Origin: Solobacterium sp.
GTDB lineage: Bacteria; Bacillota_I; Bacilli_A; Erysipelotrichales; Erysipelotrichaceae
Direction: 5' to 3'
Length of the DNA: 64,000 nt
Assembly: GCA_017510405.1 (NCBI GenBank)
Contig: JAFWNG010000034.1
Location: 1 to 64,000 of the forward strand
Shown here: positions 7,923 through 51,064 of the stretch, in pieces
Layout: every line of letters starts with the position of its first letter
How positions within the stretch are numbered: the first letter of the stretch is position 1
The notes under the pieces: generated by a model
Database searches by the model: none
Seen by the model: the letters and a program-made list of their open reading frames with translations, nothing else
What the model was told of the DNA's origin: nothing
Made by a program: the position numbers and the translations under genes

Positions 7923-8600
7923 TTACTCAACTGTTACCGGGATGCCCGGGCCCATTGTTGTGGACATTGTGACTTTCTTAATGTATGTTCCCTTAACAGT
8001 AGCCGGTTTAACCTTCTTCATCTGTTCGAGGATCGCTACATAGTTCTCAGCCAGAGCTTCATCTGTGAAGGAGCACTTACCGATCATGACGTTGATGTTT
8101 CCGTCTCTGTCAACACGGTATGTAACTTTACCTTTCTTGATCTCATCGATTGCCTGAGCAACGTTCATTGTAACTGTACCGGTCTTCGGGTTCGGCATTA
8201 AGCCTCTCGGTCCCAGCAGACGGCCCAGCTTACCAAGCTGACCCATCATATCCGGTGTAGCAACGATGACATCAAATCCGAGCCAGCCCTTCTGGATCTC
8301 GTCGATCATGTCCTTGCCGCCGACGAAGTCTGCGCCTGCAGCCTTTGCTTCTTCAAGCTTTGCACCCTGTGTGATGACCAGAACTTTGCGTGTTTTACCT
8401 GTGCCGTTCGGAAGAACCATAGCACCACGGATGTTCTGCTCAGCCTGACGCGGGTCAACGTTGAGGAAGAAACTTACTTCGACAGAAGAGTCGAATGTTG
8501 TTACTGCTGTCTTCTTTGCCAGAGCAACTGCATCTTTGTAATTGTAGGTAGTTGTGCGGTCTACCATAGCCTTAGCTGTTTTGTACTTTTTGCCTGCCAT
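7923..8600 (-). CDS. rplA: 50S ribosomal protein L1 (uL1)
   Basis: 225 residues, near the usual length for uL1. It begins MAGKKYK and carries the family stretch [15 protein letters not shown] near residue 125. It forms the L1 stalk of the large subunit and in many bacteria also binds its own mRNA to repress the rplK-rplA operon. It follows rplK after two bases and is closed by a strong terminator. The start has GGGAGG upstream. Confidence 0.98.
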
Positions 8601-8602
8601 GA

Positions 8603-9025
8603 TTACGCCTCCCAGCCTTCAATTGTGATGCCCATGTTGCGGGCTGTGCCGGCAATGATCTTCATTGCTGCGTCAACGTCATTCGCGTTGAGGTCCGGCA
8701 TCTTGTATTCAGCGATCTCACGAAGCTGAGCTTCTGTGATCTTGCCGGCCTTGACAGCCTTCGGGTTGCCGGAAGCTTTGTCAATGCCTGCAGCCTTCTT
8801 CAGAAGGTTCGCTGCCGGTGTTGTCTTGATGACGAAATCGAACGACTTATCTTCATAAGCTGTGATGATAACCGGAACGATGTCACCTCTGCGGTCTTTT
8901 GTCTTGTCGTTGAATTCTGTGCAGAATTTCGGCATGTTGATTCCTGCGGATGCCAGTGCAGGACCTGGTTTTGCTCCGCCTGCAGGGAACTGGAGCTTGC
9001 AGACTTTTGCGACTTTCTTTGCCAT
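8603..9025 (-). CDS. rplK: 50S ribosomal protein L11 (uL11)
   Basis: 140 residues, standard length. The N-terminal stretch [20 protein letters not shown] is the diagnostic uL11 sequence. The C-terminal rRNA-binding half, with the conserved lysine-rich loop, is complete. L11 sits at the GTPase-associated centre. The gene is transcribed from its own promoter after the nusG terminator, ahead of rplA. AAGGAGGAAG precedes the ATG. Confidence 0.98.
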
Positions 9026-9112
9026 GTGGCTTCCTCCTTATGATTTTTCCACATGCAGTGGTTCAGCGGATCTCTCCTCCCACGCATGGTGCGCACGAAA
9101 ACGTGCAGAATG
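9026..9112 (-). promoter_or_regulatory. rplK: rplK leader, possible L1-binding autoregulatory site
   Basis: The 5' untranslated leader of rplK contains GTGGGAGGAGAG and a downstream ATGTGG that can fold with flanking bases. Leaders of L11-L1 operons are often bound by L1 as a mimic of its rRNA site. I infer this from position and a loose resemblance only. Confidence 0.25.
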
Positions 9113-9141
9113 ATAGTACTATAACCAGCCTGCTTCGTCAA
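9113..9141 (-). promoter_or_regulatory. Promoter of rplK-rplA
   Basis: TTGACG, a 17-base spacer and TACTAT on the minus strand, directly after the nusG terminator. Confidence 0.7.
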
Positions 9142-9159
9142 GCGGAAAGTGCCTTATTT

Positions 9160-9190
9160 ACAGAAAGAAAATGCACTTTTCAGTGCATTT
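9160..9190 (-). terminator. Terminator after nusG
   Basis: AAATGCACT and AGTGCATTT pair around a four-base loop, followed on the minus strand by TTCTTTCT. Confidence 0.85.
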
Positions 9191-9197
9191 CCAAAGC

Positions 9198-9773
9198 TTA
9201 CTTTTCCGACTTTTCCAGATCGGTATATTCGATATCAGACGGGATCTCACGTCCTGCGAACATAGCGATGGAAACGCTGGCAATACGTGTCTGGTCGTTC
9301 ATGGCGATGACACGGCCGATCTTTCCGACGAACGGTCCGGACAGTACCTTGACGCGGTCGCCGATTTTGAAGTCGATCGCAGCGTTCTTATCGTTCTTGC
9401 CGATTCTGCGCAGGATGGATTCCATCTCTTCCGGTGCGACCGGGAACGGCTTTGCACCGCCGCCGGAGGAACCGATGAATCCTGTTACGCCCGGCGTGTT
9501 GCGGATAACGTACCACGCTTCGTTTGTCATCTTCATTTCTACGAAGAGATAACCGGGGAACAGGTTGTGCATCTTTTCGACCTGCTTGCCGCCTTTGATC
9601 TCGATCTCCGGTTCTTCGGCAACGACGATCCGGAACAGCGAGTCCTGGATACCCATGCTCTCGACACGCTTTTCGAGATTCTCCTTAACACGGTTCTCAT
9701 GTCCGGAGTAGGTATTGACGACATACCACTGTATTGGTTCTTCTTTTACTTCGGGCTCTTTCTTCTCTGTCAT
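9198..9773 (-). CDS. nusG: Transcription elongation/termination factor NusG
   Basis: 191 residues from ATG 9773. A TTG in frame at 9791 would add six residues, but the ATG directly after the secE stop is preferred. The N-terminal NGN domain has WYVVNTYSGHENRVKENL near residue 17. The C-terminal KOW domain has GDRVKVLSGPFVGKIGRV. NusG binds the RNA polymerase clamp, stabilises elongation and links it to Rho or the ribosome. It is co-transcribed with rpmG and secE and closed by a terminator. The gene order is the standard bacterial one. Confidence 0.97.
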   Translation of the reverse strand: MTEKKEPEVKEEPIQWYVVNTYSGHENRVKENLEKRVESMGIQDSLFRIVVAEEPEIEIKGGKQVEKMHNLFPGYLFVEMKMTNEAWYVIRNTPGVTGFIGSSGGGAKPFPVAPEEMESILRRIGKNDKNAAIDFKIGDRVKVLSGPFVGKIGRVIAMNDQTRIASVSIAMFAGREIPSDIEYTDLEKSEK

Positions 9774-10262: not shown

Positions 10263-10838
10263 TTACACGCTTTTCAGCCTTCTGAGACGGCCGTCGTAGG
10301 CTTTTACGGTTATACCGGCAGTCCTGGCGCCTTCCGCATAGGTCATGCCCTCGTTGCTGCAGGCCAGGATCAGCCTCTCCAGGGGCGACATGTCCTTTAG
10401 AACGCCGCGCACTCTTCTTACCGCCGCGTAAAAATCGGTATAGTACTGCGGGTCCTGCAGCGACGCTGTATCACGGGGCTGTATCGAGTACCCTGTATGA
10501 TCTTCCATGACTTTATCAAGCGGCACCGATGCCCACATATCCGCGTATTCGTGTGTGCGGTAATAGCGGATCAGGTTCAGCAGTCTTCTGCGCATGACGA
10601 TCGTGAAAAATGTCTGCGGGGAAGCGTGCATATCCTCACGGTACATATCTTCCGCGGCGGTCATGGCAATGATGCCTTCCTGTACGATATCTTCGGCATA
10701 GAAACGCAAGCCCGGGTCTCTTGCACAGGCGGAAGCCATGATCGCGCGGGATACATTCCGGCACCAGAAAAAAAGAGCCTTACGGGCATATACATCACCC
10801 ATACGACTCATATAAAGCAGTTCATACATGTTTTCCAT
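10263..10838 (-). CDS. Sigma-70 family RNA polymerase sigma factor
   Basis: 191 residues. Region 2 is recognisable at about 45-95 (AEDIVQEGIIAM, then FFTIVMRRRLLNLIRYYR). Region 4 is at about 150-190 (MSPLERLILACSNEGMTYAEGARTAGI). The gene lies between rlmB and rpmG, where SigH lies in many Bacillota, so it is likely a SigH-position alternative sigma factor. With no spore genes in view, a role in competence or stress is as likely as sporulation. AGGAGGT precedes the ATG, and the rlmB stop lies upstream of it, so it ends the cysS operon. Confidence 0.85.
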   Translation of the reverse strand: MENMYELLYMSRMGDVYARKALFFWCRNVSRAIMASACARDPGLRFYAEDIVQEGIIAMTAAEDMYREDMHASPQTFFTIVMRRRLLNLIRYYRTHEYADMWASVPLDKVMEDHTGYSIQPRDTASLQDPQYYTDFYAAVRRVRGVLKDMSPLERLILACSNEGMTYAEGARTAGITVKAYDGRLRRLKSV

Positions 10839-43670: not shown

Positions 43671-45188
43671 TTAGTTATAGGATTCTCCTCCGGCCACATT
43701 GAAGTATTCCTCAAATGTCGTCTCCGGACCGCAGGACCAGATGGCCGCTGCGTAGTCTTTTCCGACATAGCGGAAATGCCATGGTTCATACATGTATCCT
43801 GTCACCGACTGCTTTGTCTTCGGATACCGCATGATGAAGCCGTATTTCCAGGCATTGTTCTTCAGCCACTTGCCTTCGCTCGTATTTTCAAAACTCTGTG
43901 ACAGATATGTTGCGCCGGAGCGGTCGGAAATATCCATTGCCAGACCTGTCTGGTGCTCGGAATAGCCCGGTCTTGCGCTGTAGGTGTCCGCCGCAGCCTT
44001 TCCGCTTCTTGCGACATAGTTGTTGTACAGGGTCGCCTGGTAGGACTGGGAACGGAAGCCGCTGCCCGCTACCAGATAGACGCCCTCTGCCCTGGCAGCC
44101 GCAAACATCTGTTCCAGCGCCGTGGCAGCTTCATCGCGCATCGGTGTGCTCATGCGTGCCGATACGTTCGGCTGTCTCATATCGGACGGTTCATAGTTAT
44201 TGGGAAGCTTGTGCTGCTTGTTTGCGACAAGAAGGATACTGTTCACATTGTTGAACAGAGGCGCCAGTTCCTTGTTGGATACTGCTTCCCATCCCGAATC
44301 ACTGATGATTTTCTGGAATTCCTTTGAATCGGCAAATCCGGCCATGACCGAATCTCTCGATGTTCCGCTGTTCAGGCTGCTCACCCAGTCATTCAGGCCG
44401 GGGACGTCATATTCTCTGCCCAGGAATGTACGGTACATTACTTTGACAAACTCGGTGTTGTTCAGATTCTTCTTCAGGAATTCCTGTGAATGGAAGAATC
44501 CTGATGTTGCGACCTGTTTCGGCGTACGCTTCTTCAGGATCAGAAGATCACACCAGTTGTTGATGCCGTTTGCGTCCGGCGTTCTGCCCAGACCCTTATT
44601 ATACAGTCTGCCGACGAAGGAGGTCAGACCGTAATTCTGATCCCGGCGTTCGGTCAGCGTGATATCACCTTTTACGACTCCGTATTTGGCACAGAGTCCG
44701 GCAAACTCCGAACTGCCGACAAAGCCCTTCAGTACAAAGTTCTGGCTGACGCCGTTGGTCAGACAGTCGACCCAGGTCTTCTTTCCCGGCGCATCGCTCT
44801 TTCTGTCCATGATCGCCTTATAGCAGATCTCTACCCAGTCCGAGATGGAATAGTTCTTCGCCTTCATTTCATTGGAAAGCATGAATCCCTGCACAGCTCC
44901 GGCAGCGCTCACCTTTCCGGATTTCAGCCAGTTGATCCAGTCCATATACCCTGTTTTATCCGGTTTGCGGCCAAGGCACACTTCATAGAGCCGCGTGACA
45001 AATCCATTCACATCGTCTGCGTACAGCAGTTCATTTTCTTCGCCGGCTTCTTCCGCGGCTGTTTCCGTTACTGTTTCTTCCTGCGGCTTTTCTTCATCTG
45101 CCCGGATCACGGTATGCATCCCGGTCCCCGTCAATGCTATTGCGCAGAACAGTGCAGTCATACGTTTCATCAGTCTGTTCTTATTCAT
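43671..45188 (-). CDS. VanY-type D-Ala-D-Ala carboxypeptidase with DUF4214 repeats
   Basis: 505 residues. Signal peptide of about 30 residues. Four DUF4214 units lie between about 55 and 300 (GRKPDKTGYMDWINWL and GRTPDANGINNW are two of them). The C-terminal M15 peptidase has GFRS (Arg379 next to it), SEHQTGLAMD with His412 and Asp419, and EPWHFRYVG with His471. It trims the D-Ala of wall peptides outside the cell, and the repeats probably bind the surface. GAGGT upstream of the ATG. It lies at the left edge of the cassette at 45.3-51 kb. Confidence 0.9.
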   Translation of the reverse strand: MNKNRLMKRMTALFCAIALTGTGMHTVIRADEEKPQEETVTETAAEEAGEENELLYADDVNGFVTRLYEVCLGRKPDKTGYMDWINWLKSGKVSAAGAVQGFMLSNEMKAKNYSISDWVEICYKAIMDRKSDAPGKKTWVDCLTNGVSQNFVLKGFVGSSEFAGLCAKYGVVKGDITLTERRDQNYGLTSFVGRLYNKGLGRTPDANGINNWCDLLILKKRTPKQVATSGFFHSQEFLKKNLNNTEFVKVMYRTFLGREYDVPGLNDWVSSLNSGTSRDSVMAGFADSKEFQKIISDSGWEAVSNKELAPLFNNVNSILLVANKQHKLPNNYEPSDMRQPNVSARMSTPMRDEAATALEQMFAAARAEGVYLVAGSGFRSQSYQATLYNNYVARSGKAAADTYSARPGYSEHQTGLAMDISDRSGATYLSQSFENTSEGKWLKNNAWKYGFIMRYPKTKQSVTGYMYEPWHFRYVGKDYAAAIWSCGPETTFEEYFNVAGGESYN

Positions 45189-45345: not shown

Positions 45346-46995
45346 TCAGTATCCGTTGATTGCCGTGAATGCCGCAAACGCGATCAATATGTCGAAATAG
45401 TTCTTGATCGAAAATAACGGATAACCTGCTTTTTCCAGATATTCGTTTACCGTTCTTTCAAACTCGGCGCATACTGTCTGAAAGCTGTCTTTATTCTGCA
45501 GTTCACAGTTCGTTTCCACAAACAGATAGTAATGCAGACCCATGATCTTCAGTCTGCCGATATCTTCCGGCGAATCGACTTTTAAATACGGATACGAGAT
45601 GAACTGATGAAATTTGCCGATCAGCATCAGGAAGTCCTGCAGCTTTTCCTCGGTTATATCTTTATATTTCGAAAGAAACTTCTGCGGATTCGAACGTATA
45701 TCCGAATCAATGATAATGCTCATCCCGTAATCGCAGTCCCCGACCGATACTCCTTCTTTCTGCAATTCTTTCAGGATCGAGCCGTAAACACGAAAAGCCG
45801 TTTTCTGGGCGCTGACACTCTTCTCCGGATCATCCGTTTTATCATCTGTACAGTCGAAATCGTTCGGAATCCTTTTCAATAGAACATCTTCATTCAGTGC
45901 AAAATAAGAAGGCCATAATTGTTCAAACTTAAGTGTGCTGTAACGGATCGTATTATGACTGCCCGGATCTGCCGGCTTGCTGTTTCTCAGTTTTTCTATC
46001 ATTTCCGTAGATTTTTTAAGCTTTTCTGCCGGCGGCATTTCTCTGTTCAGATAATACAGCCATACAAGTTCACGGTAGTCTTTCTTATTGATTCCCTGAC
46101 CGGAAGGATCTTTTTCATAGCTGCCGTTATTGTCTGCTTTATATTCTTCAAGCAGAAAGCGGGTAATGTTATTCACGTAATACTGCTCAAATAAAACCGC
46201 TTCAATATCTTTCTCTTTTTCATATTTTTCCATAGGGTCTTCCGAATAGTATATCATTCCATATACGATACCGAAGTAATACAGATATCTTTTGGTGAAT
46301 CCGTTTTTATGGAACAGTCCTTTTGCCAGGTCGTCACAGATCGTAAGGAGTCCGTACGTGCCGTCCGCTTTTCTCTGGTTTGGCGTTGCTTTGACGGCCT
46401 TCGGATCATCCGTTTCTTTCGCATCCAGCGGTTTGAAAATTCCATCATCCAGATTTTCAAGAATCGTCCGGGTATCCAGTTGTTTGTTCTGAATATTTTT
46501 CAGTTTCGGATTCTTCTTTTTCACATATTTCCGGATGTATCCGTCCCCTTTGATGCCGGTGTCTTTCAGGGCATTCCCTTCTTTTACGAACTGCCTGAGT
46601 ATGCGAAGCCGGGTAGGTTCACTGCCCCATCCGAGTGAAGGGTCTTCCAGGTGATCCACGGTCCTCTTCATATACATCTCCGGAGAATAATATTCCTCCA
46701 TTTTACTCATGATGCTGTGGAGCATATGGTATTTCATCTGATCATAGGAGGGAAATGTATATTGAGACAGCAGCTTTATATAGTAATCAGCGTCGTCTGT
46801 TCTCCGTTCAAATGCTATATTCCGGGCATTCATAATGCTTTCCAGTCTGCTTAAGGTTTCGAGGTAGTCGCTCCGTCCTTCGCTTTCTTTCAGATCCCTC
46901 AGAAGATTATCAACGGTCTGCTGCGATGCAGCACTGCTCAGTTCTGCAACCAGAGCGTTGTATATGGTTTTCGCGCCCAGTGTTATCGTTCCCAT
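45346..46995 (-). CDS. Unrecognised protein of 549 residues
   Basis: Soluble, largely helical, rich in Lys, Tyr, Asp and Glu, without signal peptide or membrane helix. Segments such as FPSYDQMKYHMLHSIMSKM and KRYLYYFGIVYGMIYYSEDP suggest a helical repeat or globular enzyme-like core. I recognise no family or catalytic motif. GGGGGAT lies about ten bases before the ATG, with TATAAT at 47029-47034. It is divergent from the ClpP-like gene across 108 bases and shares that promoter region. It is the only minus-strand gene of the cassette. Confidence 0.6.
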   Translation of the reverse strand: MGTITLGAKTIYNALVAELSSAASQQTVDNLLRDLKESEGRSDYLETLSRLESIMNARNIAFERRTDDADYYIKLLSQYTFPSYDQMKYHMLHSIMSKMEEYYSPEMYMKRTVDHLEDPSLGWGSEPTRLRILRQFVKEGNALKDTGIKGDGYIRKYVKKKNPKLKNIQNKQLDTRTILENLDDGIFKPLDAKETDDPKAVKATPNQRKADGTYGLLTICDDLAKGLFHKNGFTKRYLYYFGIVYGMIYYSEDPMEKYEKEKDIEAVLFEQYYVNNITRFLLEEYKADNNGSYEKDPSGQGINKKDYRELVWLYYLNREMPPAEKLKKSTEMIEKLRNSKPADPGSHNTIRYSTLKFEQLWPSYFALNEDVLLKRIPNDFDCTDDKTDDPEKSVSAQKTAFRVYGSILKELQKEGVSVGDCDYGMSIIIDSDIRSNPQKFLSKYKDITEEKLQDFLMLIGKFHQFISYPYLKVDSPEDIGRLKIMGLHYYLFVETNCELQNKDSFQTVCAEFERTVNEYLEKAGYPLFSIKNYFDILIAFAAFTAINGY

Positions 46996-47103: not shown

Positions 47104-47697
47104 ATGAACGTTGAAGTGAAAAGCAGCAGCGGAATCTCTCTCGTCCCAATGGAGACACGGAATCTTGCGAACCGCATCATCTTCCTTAAGGGAGAGATCG
47201 ACGGTGACAAAGCCTGTGAGTTCCTGGAACAGGTCCTGCACCTGAACCGGGAAGATGATTCGCTTCCGATCACAGTACTCATCCATTCACCAGGCGGTGA
47301 GATCGACGCAGGAATGTTAATATACGATGTCATGCGTTCCAGCAAAGCACCGATCAAAACCGTCTGCACCGGCAAAGCCTACAGCATGGCTGCAGTGCTC
47401 CTGGCAGCGGGAACCGGCGGAAGATACATCCTTCCCCACAGCAAATCGATGCTGCATGAACCGCTGATCCCCAACGGTGTCGGCGGGAACTGTTCTTCCA
47501 TCCGTTCTATCTCCGAGAGTCTCATTGAGACACGTAAAATGATGAATGACATCCTGGCAAAGCACACCGGAAAAAGCGCAGACGAGATCGAAAAGGCAAC
47601 TGCTTACGATCACTACTTCTCCGCTGAGGAAAGTGTGTCTTTTGGTCTTTGCGACAAAATAATCAGCTTTGATGAAATAGAGGAGGTGATGAAGTAA
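47104..47697 (+). CDS. ClpP-like serine protease paralog
   Basis: 197 residues. The ClpP fold is clear: FLKGEIDG, INSPGG-like IHSPGG at 61-65, the catalytic serine in KAYSMAAVLLAAG (Ser94), His118 in SMLHEPL and Asp169 in TAYDHYFSAEESVSFGLCDK. So the triad is complete and the length is normal. Distinct local features such as AYSMA for the usual AASMG suggest an accessory paralog. AAAGGAG lies before the ATG. It overlaps the ATPase gene by one base, so the two are translated together. No Clp ATPase is adjacent. Confidence 0.88.
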   Translation: MNVEVKSSSGISLVPMETRNLANRIIFLKGEIDGDKACEFLEQVLHLNREDDSLPITVLIHSPGGEIDAGMLIYDVMRSSKAPIKTVCTGKAYSMAAVLLAAGTGGRYILPHSKSMLHEPLIPNGVGGNCSSIRSISESLIETRKMMNDILAKHTGKSADEIEKATAYDHYFSAEESVSFGLCDKIISFDEIEEVMK

Positions 47698-48935
47698 TGA
47701 TGCGTGATCTTCAAATTCTTGGCAAAGGTGTTTCTTTCCCGGCTGACACTCATGTGACGGGGATCAACGGCAATACGCTGGTGATCGGCGGAACAGGCTC
47801 CGGCAAAACAATGAGTATTGTTGAGCCCGCACTCATCAACACGTATGACCGCAGTATTATCGTAACCATGACAAAGCGGAAGCTCGTGAAGCGTTACAGC
47901 GGGCTTCTCGCTTCGCGCGGATATGACATCCGCATCCTTGATTTTGCCGATCCTGACAGATCGACCTGTTCTTTTGATCCTCTGAAATATCTCAGATCCG
48001 AAAGCGATGTCCGGCAGCTGGCAACCGCCATTATTAAAGCGGAATCCGCTGTTAACAAAAACATAGATCCCTATTGGGACAACGCAGCGATCTCTCTTCT
48101 GACGTCTCTGATCGCATATGTTATCACAGAGTATGAGCATCCCACATTCGCTGACGTCCTCGATCTGTATCATGCGATCGAAACAAAAGACGGTGACAGC
48201 GTATTTCTGGAAACTAATGTTGACGAGAAGTTCAAACAGCTGGCCCGGAAAAACCCCAGGCACTTTGCTCTTCACGGCTGGAATGTTTTTCATAACGTCA
48301 GCAGCCGCACAGCCTCATGCATCTACTCCACCCTCGCAGCCGCAATGGAAACCGTGTTTAACCCGGAGCTCTCACGGCTGATGCGGATGCATCAGGACGT
48401 TGACTTTGAAAGTATCGCCAAAATACCCACAGCCGTTTTTGTGGTCACTTCTCCTTTCAATACGGCTTTGAACCGTTTTGTCAGTATCTTCTATTCAACC
48501 GCTTTCTCCGAATTATTCAGCTTTGCAGAAGAACTGGAAAGCGGCACTCTGCCGGTGCCGGTACATGTGTTCTGTGATGACCTTGCGACAGGAAGCCCGA
48601 TCACCCGCCTGGACGAATATATCAGTATATTCCGTGAAAAGGGAATTTCCATCGACCTGCTGCTGCAGTCCGAAAGCCAGCTTCAGCACATGTACGGTGA
48701 GCAGGCCGCAACCACTATCATTAATAACTGCGATACCTATGTATACCTGGGCGGGATGGACCTTCAGTCTGCCAAGTCCATAAGTCAGCGTATGAACATG
48801 CCGCTGGAAGATGTTCTTTACATGCCCGTCGGCCAGGTCTTTATCTGCCGGCGCGGCATTAAGCCGATCAAGACAGTGCGATACGATACATTGTCTGATG
48901 AGATCTATCGCTCTATTGTTGATGAGATCGGCTGA
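47697..48935 (+). CDS. VirD4/TraG-type ATPase without membrane domain
   Basis: 412 residues. Walker A GGTGSGKT at 31-38, Walker B-like VPVHVFCDDLA with Asp294-Asp295, and the coupling-protein stretch LLLQSESQLQHMYG near 321 followed by IINNCDTYVYLGG. These match the ATPase domain of type IV coupling proteins. The N-terminal membrane helices and the all-alpha domain boundary of classic VirD4 are missing or reduced, since the Walker A comes only 30 residues from the start. No relaxase or other transfer gene is in view. GGAGGTGATG before the ATG supports the start. Confidence 0.8.
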   Translation: MMRDLQILGKGVSFPADTHVTGINGNTLVIGGTGSGKTMSIVEPALINTYDRSIIVTMTKRKLVKRYSGLLASRGYDIRILDFADPDRSTCSFDPLKYLRSESDVRQLATAIIKAESAVNKNIDPYWDNAAISLLTSLIAYVITEYEHPTFADVLDLYHAIETKDGDSVFLETNVDEKFKQLARKNPRHFALHGWNVFHNVSSRTASCIYSTLAAAMETVFNPELSRLMRMHQDVDFESIAKIPTAVFVVTSPFNTALNRFVSIFYSTAFSELFSFAEELESGTLPVPVHVFCDDLATGSPITRLDEYISIFREKGISIDLLLQSESQLQHMYGEQAATTIINNCDTYVYLGGMDLQSAKSISQRMNMPLEDVLYMPVGQVFICRRGIKPIKTVRYDTLSDEIYRSIVDEIG

Positions 48936-49138: not shown

Positions 49139-49208
49139 GCTTCGAATCTCCCTGTCATCCTGCGGCCATATGGGCAGAGTTCAAAACTCACTAAAGAAAA
49201 GGAGACAT
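49139..49208 (+). repeat. Cassette leader repeat, copy 1
   Basis: About 70 bases similar to 49559-49627, with a 24-base identical core at 49159-49182 that contains GGCCATATGGGC, then AACTCAC and AAAGAAAAGGA. It lies upstream of the 66-residue protein gene. Confidence 0.7.
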
Positions 49209-49278
49209 GGTTCAGATTCCCAGACGGCAATACAGAACAGTCATCCAGTTTCAAAACAATAAATATAAGGAGGACAAT

Positions 49279-49479
49279 ATGAAAGAAGTATTCAAAGTAA
49301 AGAAGGAAATGGTTCAGATCCCTGAAGGTACCTTCAATCAGTATATAGAATGCAAAAATTGCCCTGATACCGGGAAGCCGGAATGGAGGGGCAGCGACAA
49401 CGGATATATGTACTGGTGCAGCCGCCATAATCATTGGGAGGATGTACATTCCGGCTGTACTAACTCCTCCATCAGCTAA
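49279..49479 (+). CDS. 66-residue Cys/His protein
   Basis: Begins MKEVFKVKKEMVQIPEG at ATG 49279 with AAGGAGG upstream. Cys25, Cys28, Cys47 and Cys60 with His50 and His52 could bind one zinc ion. No family recognised. Its transcript starts behind leader repeat 1 and ends at a very strong terminator, so it is an independent unit. Confidence 0.6.
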   Translation: MKEVFKVKKEMVQIPEGTFNQYIECKNCPDTGKPEWRGSDNGYMYWCSRHNHWEDVHSGCTNSSIS

Positions 49480-49488
49480 AAGCCTGTA

Positions 49489-49526
49489 AGACCTGGGGGA
49501 TGCCCGGCATCCCTCAGGTCTTTTTT
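49489..49526 (+). terminator. Terminator of the 66-residue protein gene
   Basis: A stem of AGACCTG plus GGGATGCC pairs with GGCATCCC plus CAGGTCT, followed by six T. Confidence 0.95.
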
Positions 49527-49558: not shown

Positions 49559-49627
49559 CCGTTTCAAATCTTCCTGTTTCCTGCGGCCATATGGGCAGAG
49601 TTAACTCACAAAGAAAAGGAAACATAC
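49559..49627 (+). repeat. Cassette leader repeat, copy 2
   Basis: Second copy of the repeat at 49139-49208, core at 49579-49602. It lies upstream of the JAB and beta-prime-like genes. Confidence 0.7.
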
Positions 49628-49688
49628 GTAAGGTTCGAAATCGGAAAAGAGAACTGTCAGTTCCCGAACAAAGAAAGAAGGACGCATT

Positions 49689-50051
49689 ATGAATATTTCC
49701 CCACACATATATAAACAATGCAGAGATACACTCCTGAAACCGGAAATGGGCGGTATTCTCGGATGTGACGAGAACGGCAATATCATTGCCTATCATTTTG
49801 ACGACACCGGATGTTCGGACAATCATAACGAGTATTCCCCGGATACGAAGCGCCTGAATGAAGTGATTAAGGAATGGTATGATCAGGGGATCTATTTTGC
49901 CGGTTTCATTCACTCGCACGGCATACGTCCGCGTCTGACATGCGGTGATCTTGCCTATGTCGATAAGATCAAGGAAGCCTGCGGGATGGAACAGCTTTTT
50001 ATGATGATCTATGTTCTTGCGGCTGACAAGTTCTATGAATATGTTGTCTGA
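49689..50051 (+). CDS. JAB/MPN-family protein
   Basis: 120 residues. Glu19 in EMGGILG, then GFIHSHG with His75 and His77, and TCGD with Asp87 form the metal site of JAMM proteins, which remove ubiquitin-like or other isopeptide or peptide groups. The spacing between the second histidine and the Ser/Asp part is one residue shorter than the usual H-x7-S-x2-D, and Thr84 stands for Ser. A GAAGG lies ahead of the ATG. It is followed after 17 bases by the beta-prime-like gene. Confidence 0.75.
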   Translation: MNISPHIYKQCRDTLLKPEMGGILGCDENGNIIAYHFDDTGCSDNHNEYSPDTKRLNEVIKEWYDQGIYFAGFIHSHGIRPRLTCGDLAYVDKIKEACGMEQLFMMIYVLAADKFYEYVV

Positions 50052-50068
50052 GAAAAGGAGGAAGGAAA

Positions 50069-51010
50069 ATGAAACTGCCGTTTATTGATGAATTGAATAC
50101 CGGGATCCTTGATCCGCAAAAAGTGCTGGAAGCTTCTTCCGGTGAAATCACAGAACCAGCGGATTTCTACGAGCGCTCTCACAGGCCGGTGCCCGGCGGA
50201 TTATGCGATGAGCAGATCTTTGGACCCATCGATGATTATACGTGCGCATGCGGCAAATACAGAGGCCGCCGGTATGAAGGCAGGACATGCGAGCACTGCG
50301 GTGTGACAATACTGCCCTCCTCCGTAAGAGAAACACGGATGGCGCACATACGGCTTACGGAGCCGGTTATTCCACCCTGTTATCTGAAAGAAGCTCCGTC
50401 CCTCCTCAGCCTTTTCCTTGGCATCGATCCGGAGGAATTGAAGCATATCGCTTATTCTGAAAAGTGGATCGTAACGGATCCCGGCGAACCGAAAGCCTCA
50501 AAAAAGCTCCGAGCCGGCAGTATCATCACAACAAGATCCCACTTAAACAATCTGGAAAAGCCGGATGTGAAAGGCTATGCTGCGCTATCCGGCGGTGAAG
50601 CAGTACAGATGCTGATCGAACAGATGCTGTCGACGGATCATCCCGACGGAAAGACGAATCTGCAGCTGGAATATGAGAGACTGCAGTCAGAAAGCAGCAC
50701 AGACGCAGACAAAGCGCGGCTTGAAGTACTTGAGTATTTCATCAGCGGCGATCATGATCCGCGGCATATGTTGATCACCGTTTTCCCGGTCGTACCGCCG
50801 TCATTCCGGCCGGCAGGTTCGATACTCGAATCCCGTTATCTGCATTTTGCTGCACTCAGCCTGCCTGAGAGCCGCTGTTCCAGGAGAACACGTTTCGGCA
50901 TTCCTGAGCGTCTGACAGCAGATCCGAAGAAAGCCATCCGCAGTAAAGGGCTGTATCAGGTCTGTGCCAGACGCCTGATCACGGAAATGGCCTTCCGATC
51001 CGAACCCTGA
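50069..51010 (+). CDS. Free-standing RNA polymerase beta-prime N-terminal-like protein
   Basis: 313 residues. Residues 26-250 follow the N-terminus of RpoC: ITEPADFYE, LCDEQIFGPIDDY, then a zinc site Cys59-x-Cys61-x12-Cys74-x2-Cys77 with the same spacing as Cys70/72/85/88 of E. coli beta-prime. RETRMAHIRLTEPV and ITVFPVVPPSFRP follow. After the PPSFRP segment, where the lid and sigma-binding clamp helices should begin, it diverges and ends. The catalytic DFDGD region is absent. It cannot polymerise RNA; it may bind RNA polymerase, sigma or DNA. GGAGGAAGG precedes the ATG. A terminator follows. Confidence 0.85.
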   Translation: MKLPFIDELNTGILDPQKVLEASSGEITEPADFYERSHRPVPGGLCDEQIFGPIDDYTCACGKYRGRRYEGRTCEHCGVTILPSSVRETRMAHIRLTEPVIPPCYLKEAPSLLSLFLGIDPEELKHIAYSEKWIVTDPGEPKASKKLRAGSIITTRSHLNNLEKPDVKGYAALSGGEAVQMLIEQMLSTDHPDGKTNLQLEYERLQSESSTDADKARLEVLEYFISGDHDPRHMLITVFPVVPPSFRPAGSILESRYLHFAALSLPESRCSRRTRFGIPERLTADPKKAIRSKGLYQVCARRLITEMAFRSEP

Positions 51011-51028
51011 TCCTCTCGAAATACTATG

Positions 51029-51064
51029 ACCGGCATCCAGAAATGGATGCCGGTCCTTTTTTTT
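51029..51064 (+). terminator. Terminator at the right end of the cassette
   Basis: ACCGGCATCC and GGATGCCGGT around six bases, followed by CC and a run of eight T. Confidence 0.95.

What the first reader, a model, noticed from the sequence alone, without database searches (positions are those of the whole stretch)
50069..51010. Free-standing N-terminal half of an RNA polymerase beta-prime subunit
The 313-residue protein follows RpoC from the N-terminus through the zinc-binding domain (Cys59/61/74/77, same spacing as Cys70/72/85/88 in E. coli) and the ITVFPVVPPSFRP segment. It then diverges where the lid and sigma-contacting clamp helices should be and ends before the catalytic core. It has its own ribosome binding site and terminator and no neighbouring rpoB or rest of rpoC, so it is not the cellular subunit. 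A protein of this kind could bind core polymerase, compete for sigma or DNA, or recruit the JAB or ClpP-like proteins encoded beside it.
Basis: partly seen in the sequence, partly recalled or inferred. Interest (0 to 1): 0.88.

Follow-up and report, generated by a model that had tools for sequence, protein, structure and literature searches.

The report
Free-standing RNA polymerase clamp fragment
A gut-type Solobacterium relative carries, beside its normal RNA polymerase genes, a maintained mini-gene that copies only the zinc-binding and clamp front end of the polymerase's largest subunit, sitting in a horizontally exchanged island next to protease-like genes; it may be a natural decoy of the polymerase surface, which would be new, but its function is untested.

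Summary
ORF 50069-51010 is a 313-aa relative of RpoC residues 1-250 (PF04997 1e-20; rpoC TIGR02386 9e-48 but 163 of 963 bits), with four zinc cysteines, strong RBS, own terminator and no rpoB. The true rpoBC operon lies elsewhere (39% identity). It covers about a quarter of RpoC, not half. The last 63 residues have no significant similarity to lid/clamp helices. It is not unique: Solobacterium sp. RGIG7085 has the same island at the same site (between hprK and uvrA): ClpP, VirD4-like ATPase, small Cys protein, JAB-like protein, RpoC fragment, at 48-74% identity against 93-96% for the flanks. dN/dS about 0.2 at saturated dS points to a selected, exchanged gene, not decay. No other of 273 family genomes has it. 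New here: the fragments share a 16-residue insert (GKTNLQ) only with this host's own RpoC, so they arose from this lineage's rpoC; this RpoC changed 10 of 23 otherwise invariant zinc-domain positions, against 0-1 in ten congeners; RGIG7085 carries a second fragment, without the zinc domain but with clamp helices, next to a TIR-tubulin gene. Best guess: a decoy/adaptor mimicking the RNAP zinc/clamp face, co-expressed with the JAB-like protein. Mechanism unproven.

The parts
50069..51010 (+). Stand-alone RpoC-N (beta' clamp/zinc-domain fragment), 313 aa
   Evidence: homologue L083:12706-13632 with 48% identity
50243..50302 (+). Zinc-binding domain core, residues 59-78 (C59, C61, C74, C77)
   Evidence: four Cys invariant in the window fragment, G257 fragment and host RpoC
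50636..50677 (+). Insert motif DHPDGKTNLQLEYE (residues 190-203), shared only with host RpoC and the G257 fragment
50819..51007 (+). Divergent 63-residue C-terminal tail in place of lid and clamp helices
   Evidence: no significant similarity to RpoC clamp helices; coding-like codon usage
50055..50061 (+). Shine-Dalgarno AAGGAGG of RpoC-N
   Evidence: read
51028..51063 (+). Intrinsic terminator after RpoC-N
49689..50051 (+). JAB/JAMM-like protein (120 aa), 18 bp upstream of RpoC-N; HSH-x6-TxxD motif and Glu19 kept
   Evidence: Prok-JAB E=0.03, PADLOC JAB E=0.01; 71% identical in G257; weak MPN-fold hits
49568..49630 (+). Leader element copy 2 (structured 5' leader of JAB-RpoC-N)
49279..49479 (+). 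Small Cys/His-rich protein (66 aa)
   Evidence: 74% and 64% identical to two tandem copies in G257
49146..49213 (+). Leader element copy 1 (before the small gene)
49488..49522 (+). Intrinsic terminator after the small gene
47697..48935 (+). Soluble VirD4-like ATPase (CD1115 family), no N-terminal membrane part
   Evidence: NF045973 1.8e-75, 254.5 bits against a cut-off of 250; 65% in G257
47104..47697 (+). ClpP-like peptidase with an apparent Ser94/His118/Asp169 triad, overlapping VirD4
   Evidence: PF00574 7e-50; 65% in G257
45346..46995 (-). 549-aa protein of unknown family, flanks the island in both species
   Evidence: 58% in G257; no Pfam match

Best explanation
The gene is a maintained partial paralogue of this lineage's own rpoC. 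It encodes only the N-terminal clamp and zinc-binding module of beta' (about residues 1-250 plus a new tail) and is probably made together with a JAB-like protein inside an accessory island that is exchanged between relatives. It most likely works as a soluble mimic of the zinc/clamp face of RNA polymerase. It would bind a protein or RNA that normally docks there, for instance a phage or mobile-element transcription factor, and titrate it or pass it to the JAB-like or VirD4/ClpP proteins. Shown: homology, domain limits, conserved gene order, purifying selection, shared lineage-specific insert, and hypervariable zinc domain of the host RpoC. Inferred: expression, folding, what it binds, and any link to proteolysis or phage defence.
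For: Beta' match over residues 1-250 with four Zn ligands. Same truncation and same neighbours in Solobacterium sp. RGIG7085. dN/dS 0.18-0.22 with saturated dS, third codon positions changing most, ORF intact. Island genes 48-74% identical against 93-96% for HprK, MutS and UvrA, and congeners can have hprK next to uvrA without the island, which indicates an exchanged accessory island. The insert GKTNLQ is found only in the host RpoC and the two fragments, so the copied surface is the host's own. Host RpoC changed 10/23 otherwise invariant ZBD columns against 0-1 in ten congeners, and 10/46 in 151-250 against 3/92 in lid/clamp helices, as expected if this surface is under antagonistic selection. 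A second, differently trimmed clamp fragment in RGIG7085 lies beside HTH and tubulin-TIR genes. Precedents that this surface is a docking site: HK022 put RNA binds beta' ZBD, and host mutations that block it lie only there (PMC9378689); phage Xp10 P7 binds the beta' N-terminus (PMC3985653).
Against: No partner, expression or binding data. No PADLOC model matches the fragment, and the JAB call is weak. The fragment is only 39% identical to host RpoC, which is low for a decoy that must look like the target. ZBD changes private to the host RpoC are mostly not shared by the fragments (3 and 2 shared private states). Only two genomes have it. AlphaFold with three sequences gave no usable model (pLDDT 44). 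G257's own rpoC was not recovered from its MAG, so the insert cannot be checked there.
Confidence: 0.38

Rival explanations
1. RNAP-directed regulator: the fragment binds host RNAP parts that normally contact the beta' clamp (beta C-terminus, sigma, NusG or nucleic acid) and acts as a negative or dominant-negative transcription regulator.
For: Beta' 1-314 with part of sigma is enough for promoter melting (Young et al. 2004, cited in PMC4057154), so such fragments can be active. A catalytically deficient alternate beta' was proposed as a negative regulator in Beggiatoaceae (PMC4679880). The second G257 fragment keeps the clamp helices.
Against: The window protein has no recognisable clamp helices, the main sigma/NusG site, and shows fast island-like divergence unlike a core regulator.
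Confidence: 0.27
2. Decaying partial duplication of rpoC carried along by the island, with no function.
For: Tail has lost similarity, residues 111-190 diverge strongly, tail dN/dS 0.35-0.5; known from only two genomes.
Against: Whole-gene dN/dS about 0.2, four Cys kept, ORF and operon position intact through saturated dS, coding-like codon usage in the tail.
Confidence: 0.15
3. Part of a mobilisation or translocation module: a VirD4 coupling ATPase with ClpP and accessory proteins, the fragment being a translocated or tethering factor that ties transcription of the element or of incoming DNA to the module.
For: VirD4 belongs to the conjugative CD1115 family; the ClpP-VirD4 pair recurs elsewhere, once with a Mob_Pre relaxase and a resolvase-like recombinase (L085).
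Against: No relaxase, integrase or T4SS gene seen in the window island; the VirD4 lacks its membrane part; JAB and RpoC-N are absent from the other ClpP-VirD4 pairs.
Confidence: 0.12

Closest known systems
Cellular RpoC (beta'), N-terminal domain, PF04997
   Same: Fold by homology, zinc ligands, IFGP and PV-PP-RP motifs, residues 1-250; shares the lineage insert with the host RpoC
   Different: Free-standing, 313 aa, 39% identity, no lid/clamp helices, rudder, active site or rest of the subunit
Engineered beta' 1-314 fragment (minimal promoter-melting machinery, Young et al. 2004; cited in PMC4057154)
   Same: Nearly the same length and domain limits
   Different: Laboratory construct that includes the clamp helices for sigma; these are not recognisable in the window protein (kept in G257 C15)
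Alternate beta' of Beggiatoaceae (PMC4679880)
   Same: Second, non-catalytic beta'-like gene in a genome, N-terminal part best conserved, in two related species
   Different: That one is described as having N- and C-terminal domains with catalytic-site losses, next to sensor kinases; this one is the N-terminal module alone in a protease-like island
Split beta' (RpoC1/gamma of cyanobacteria; jumbo-phage beta' pieces)
   Same: N-terminal part of beta' on its own polypeptide
   Different: Those are catalytic subunits of about 620 aa or more with the remainder encoded elsewhere; here no complementing part is encoded nearby

Membership tests
RpoC equivalog (TIGR02386) | Score above curated cut-off 963.5 bits over 1147 positions | tested here: not met
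   162.8 bits, positions 4-234 only
RNA_pol_Rpb1_1 domain (PF04997) | Score above gathering cut-off 39.7 | tested here: met
   74.6 bits, residues 6-249
RNA_pol_Rpb1_1 domain (PF04997) | Complete domain including clamp helices (to position about 312) | tested here: not met
   match ends at profile position 221; tail not similar to clamp helices
Sigma-binding beta' N-terminal module (beta' 1-314 type) | Clamp helices with sigma-contact residues | tested here: not met
   for the window protein; the C15 fragment of G257 does retain clamp helices
Sigma-binding beta' N-terminal module (beta' 1-314 type) | Binds sigma or melts promoters | not testable with these tools
   needs biochemistry
Known anti-phage defence system (PADLOC) | Matches to a catalogued system | tested here: not met
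   no match for RpoC-N; weak JAB and ATPase matches only
JAMM/JAB metalloprotease (upstream gene) | Profile match and E...HxH...D motif | tested here: inconclusive
   motif present and 71% conserved, but Pfam E=0.03 below cut-off and low-confidence model with weak MPN hits
VirD4-like CD1115 family | NF045973 above cut-off 250 | tested here: met
   254.5 bits

The most novel reading that the evidence does not exclude
Bacteria of this clade evolve free-standing RNA polymerase clamp modules from their own rpoC, at least twice and with complementary parts (zinc domain kept in one type, clamp helices in the other), as decoys or sensors in an arms race over the RNAP zinc/clamp surface. The island's structured leader RNA, ClpP-VirD4 and JAB proteins would form the rest of a new defence or counter-defence system.
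Probability: 0.2. Interest if true: 0.9.

Novelty: new variant of a known kind. Interest (0 to 1): 0.62.

Why it matters
Cellular RNA polymerase subunits are normally single-copy and whole. A natural, selected, stand-alone copy of just the beta' zinc/clamp module, made from the host's own rpoC, would be a new way to regulate or protect transcription. It would also make the beta' N-terminal module, so far studied mainly as laboratory fragments, testable in its own biology. The coincident hypervariability of the host's zinc domain points to a selective pressure on RNAP that I could not find described for these gut bacteria.

Tried and rejected
Plasmid rpoC hits: the C. difficile record inspected is an ordinary rpoB-rpoC segment, and the phage contig MT836236 is a bacterial ribosomal-protein/rpoBC segment. 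Frameshift at the tail: other frames have poorer codon usage and the second species also has a tail. Tail as diverged clamp helices: not significant for the window (p 0.3-0.5), only suggestive for G257 (p 0.09 against host, 0.43 against consensus). Gene conversion between fragment and host RpoC: few shared private states. Tree of fragments: long branches, attachment unresolved. Searches for close relatives in viral contigs and genome contigs found none beyond RGIG7085. Leader element: no Rfam family at its gathering score, none in viral contigs. Literature: no report of a stand-alone RpoC-N found. The acceleration of RpoC 51-250 as a whole is not unique (G031, without the island fragment, also shows it); only the ZBD part is.

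Full report
Observation. The ORF at 50069-51010 encodes 313 aa with a clear Shine-Dalgarno sequence and a downstream intrinsic terminator. It matches PF04997 over residues 6-249 (E 1.2e-20) and the rpoC model TIGR02386 over residues 11-249 (E 9.2e-48), but with 163 of the 963.5 bits needed. Solved bacterial beta' chains align over residues 5-257 (E 2e-40). Cys59, 61, 74 and 77 are conserved. The genome's real rpoB-rpoC operon is on another contig (1321-aa RpoC, 39% identity to the fragment over residues 7-253). The protein therefore represents roughly the first quarter of beta' (zinc domain and outer clamp), not half.

Boundary. After the PVVPPSFRP motif, residues 251-313 no longer resemble the lid and clamp helices, which are nearly invariant in congeneric RpoCs. 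Shuffle tests give p 0.3-0.5 for the window tail. For the second-species tail p is 0.09 against the host RpoC, where EMSRLQGSVNHLIN lines up with NEMRMLQEAVDALID, but 0.43 against the consensus. Codon usage in the tail looks coding in frame 0. The sigma/NusG-contacting helices are therefore lost or replaced in this protein.

Recurrence. Two of 70 genus genomes, and no other of 273 family genomes searched with residues 1-250 nor of 316 order genomes searched with residues 101-313, have a relative closer than cellular RpoC. The second is Solobacterium sp. RGIG7085, a sheep-rumen MAG (L083/L077). There the island has the same order at the same chromosomal place: 549-aa protein, ClpP, VirD4-like ATPase, small Cys-rich protein (two tandem copies), JAB-like protein, RpoC fragment (308 aa), uvrA. 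Identities are 58, 65, 65, 74/64, 71 and 48%, against 93% for HprK, 93% for MutS and 96% for UvrA. In other congeners hprK and uvrA can be about 150 bp apart (for example G207), so the island is an insertion.

Selection. Between the two species dS is 0.7-0.9 (NG86 and ML) in hprK, uvrA and mutS but above 1.6, mostly saturated, in the genes from the 549-aa protein to the fragment. The island alleles are thus older than the species split or were exchanged horizontally (inference). For the fragment NG86 gives omega 0.22 and ML 0.18, and position-3 changes exceed positions 1 and 2. This argues against neutral decay, with the caveat that two sequences at saturated dS give only a rough estimate.

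Origin. The host RpoC carries a roughly 16-residue insert in the clamp (TRNIYGEENPEGKTNLQVEFE) that other aligned RpoCs of genus and family lack. The two fragments carry it too (window DHPDGKTNLQLEYE, G257 ENPDGKTNLQIEFE). This shared indel indicates that the fragments descend from rpoC of this lineage; the sequence tree cannot place them because of long branches. G257's own rpoC was not found in its assembly.

Unusual host RpoC. Compared with ten congeneric RpoCs, the host RpoC changed 10 of 23 otherwise invariant columns in the zinc domain (0-1 in each of the others) and 10 of 46 in columns 151-250, but 3 of 92 in lid/clamp helices. Elevated change in 51-250 as a whole is also seen in G031, which lacks the island fragment, so only the zinc-domain part is specific. 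The coincidence of a copied surface and a hypervariable original suggests selection on that surface. This link is inference from one genome.

A second kind. RGIG7085 has another stand-alone beta' fragment (L130:7103-7873, 256 aa, PF04997 9.5e-26). It lacks the zinc domain but keeps lid and clamp helices and ends right after them. It lies divergent from an HTH protein and a tubulin-like/TIR fusion with PADLOC TIR matches. It shares a 3-residue insertion with the host RpoC. Two differently trimmed clamp modules in one small clade make a chance duplication less likely.

Neighbourhood. ClpP and VirD4 overlap and recur as a pair in other genomes of the genus and in Ruminococcus/Clostridia MAGs, once with a Mob_Pre relaxase, without JAB or RpoC-N. 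JAB and RpoC-N are 18 bp apart. A conserved leader of about 48 nt, three-way-junction-like, precedes the small-protein unit and the JAB-RpoC-N unit and both small genes of G257. One pair in its outer stem changes on both sides (C-G to U-A); it has no Rfam match at gathering score and is confined to these islands among the loci searched. The JAB assignment rests on motif and sub-threshold matches.

Mechanism. I favour a decoy/adaptor that displays the zinc/clamp face of RNAP. That face is a known docking site: HK022 put RNA binds the beta' ZBD and host mutations that block it lie only there (PMC9378689), and phage Xp10 P7 binds the beta' N-terminus (PMC3985653). Beta' 1-314 is active as a fragment with sigma (Young et al. 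2004, cited in PMC4057154), but the window protein lacks recognisable clamp helices, so anti-sigma action is less likely here than for the C15 fragment. A non-catalytic alternate beta' has been proposed as a negative regulator in Beggiatoaceae (PMC4679880). No report of a free-standing beta' N-terminal module was found in the library searched.

Limits. No expression or binding data, two genomes, poor structure models, no metagenome scan available.

Noticed in passing
L118:4644-8609 (host RpoC, G000:C39): Chromosomal RpoC has a hypervariable zinc domain (10/23 otherwise invariant columns changed, GVVCDRCGV to GKTCPNCHV) and a 16-aa clamp insert not seen in congeners.
   Followed up: partly
L130:7103-7873 (-) and 8083-9766 (+), G257:C15: Second stand-alone beta' fragment (256 aa, zinc domain deleted, clamp helices kept) beside an HTH gene and a tubulin-like/TIR fusion.
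   Followed up: partly
window 49146-49213 and 49568-49630; L077:9777-9841 and 10332-10396: Near-identical structured leader element (TCCTGCGGCCATATGGGCAGAGTT..AACTCACAAAGAAAAGG) repeated before island genes, more conserved than the genes; possible cis-regulatory RNA with a two-hairpin core.
   Followed up: partly
window 47104-48935; L080, L081, L082, L084, L085: A ClpP-like peptidase gene paired with a soluble VirD4-like ATPase recurs in several islands with different cargo; could be a protease-translocase pair.
   Followed up: partly
window 45346-46995; G000:C15 and G257:C18: 549-aa protein of no known family with diverged paralogues in both genomes.
   Followed up: no
window 43671-45188: DUF4214 repeats fused to a VanY D-Ala-D-Ala carboxypeptidase beside hprK.
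   Followed up: no
L092:4902-7721 (IMGVR_UViG_3300028886_000036): 275-kb viral contig encodes a 939-aa beta'-like protein; probably a phage multisubunit RNAP.
   Followed up: no
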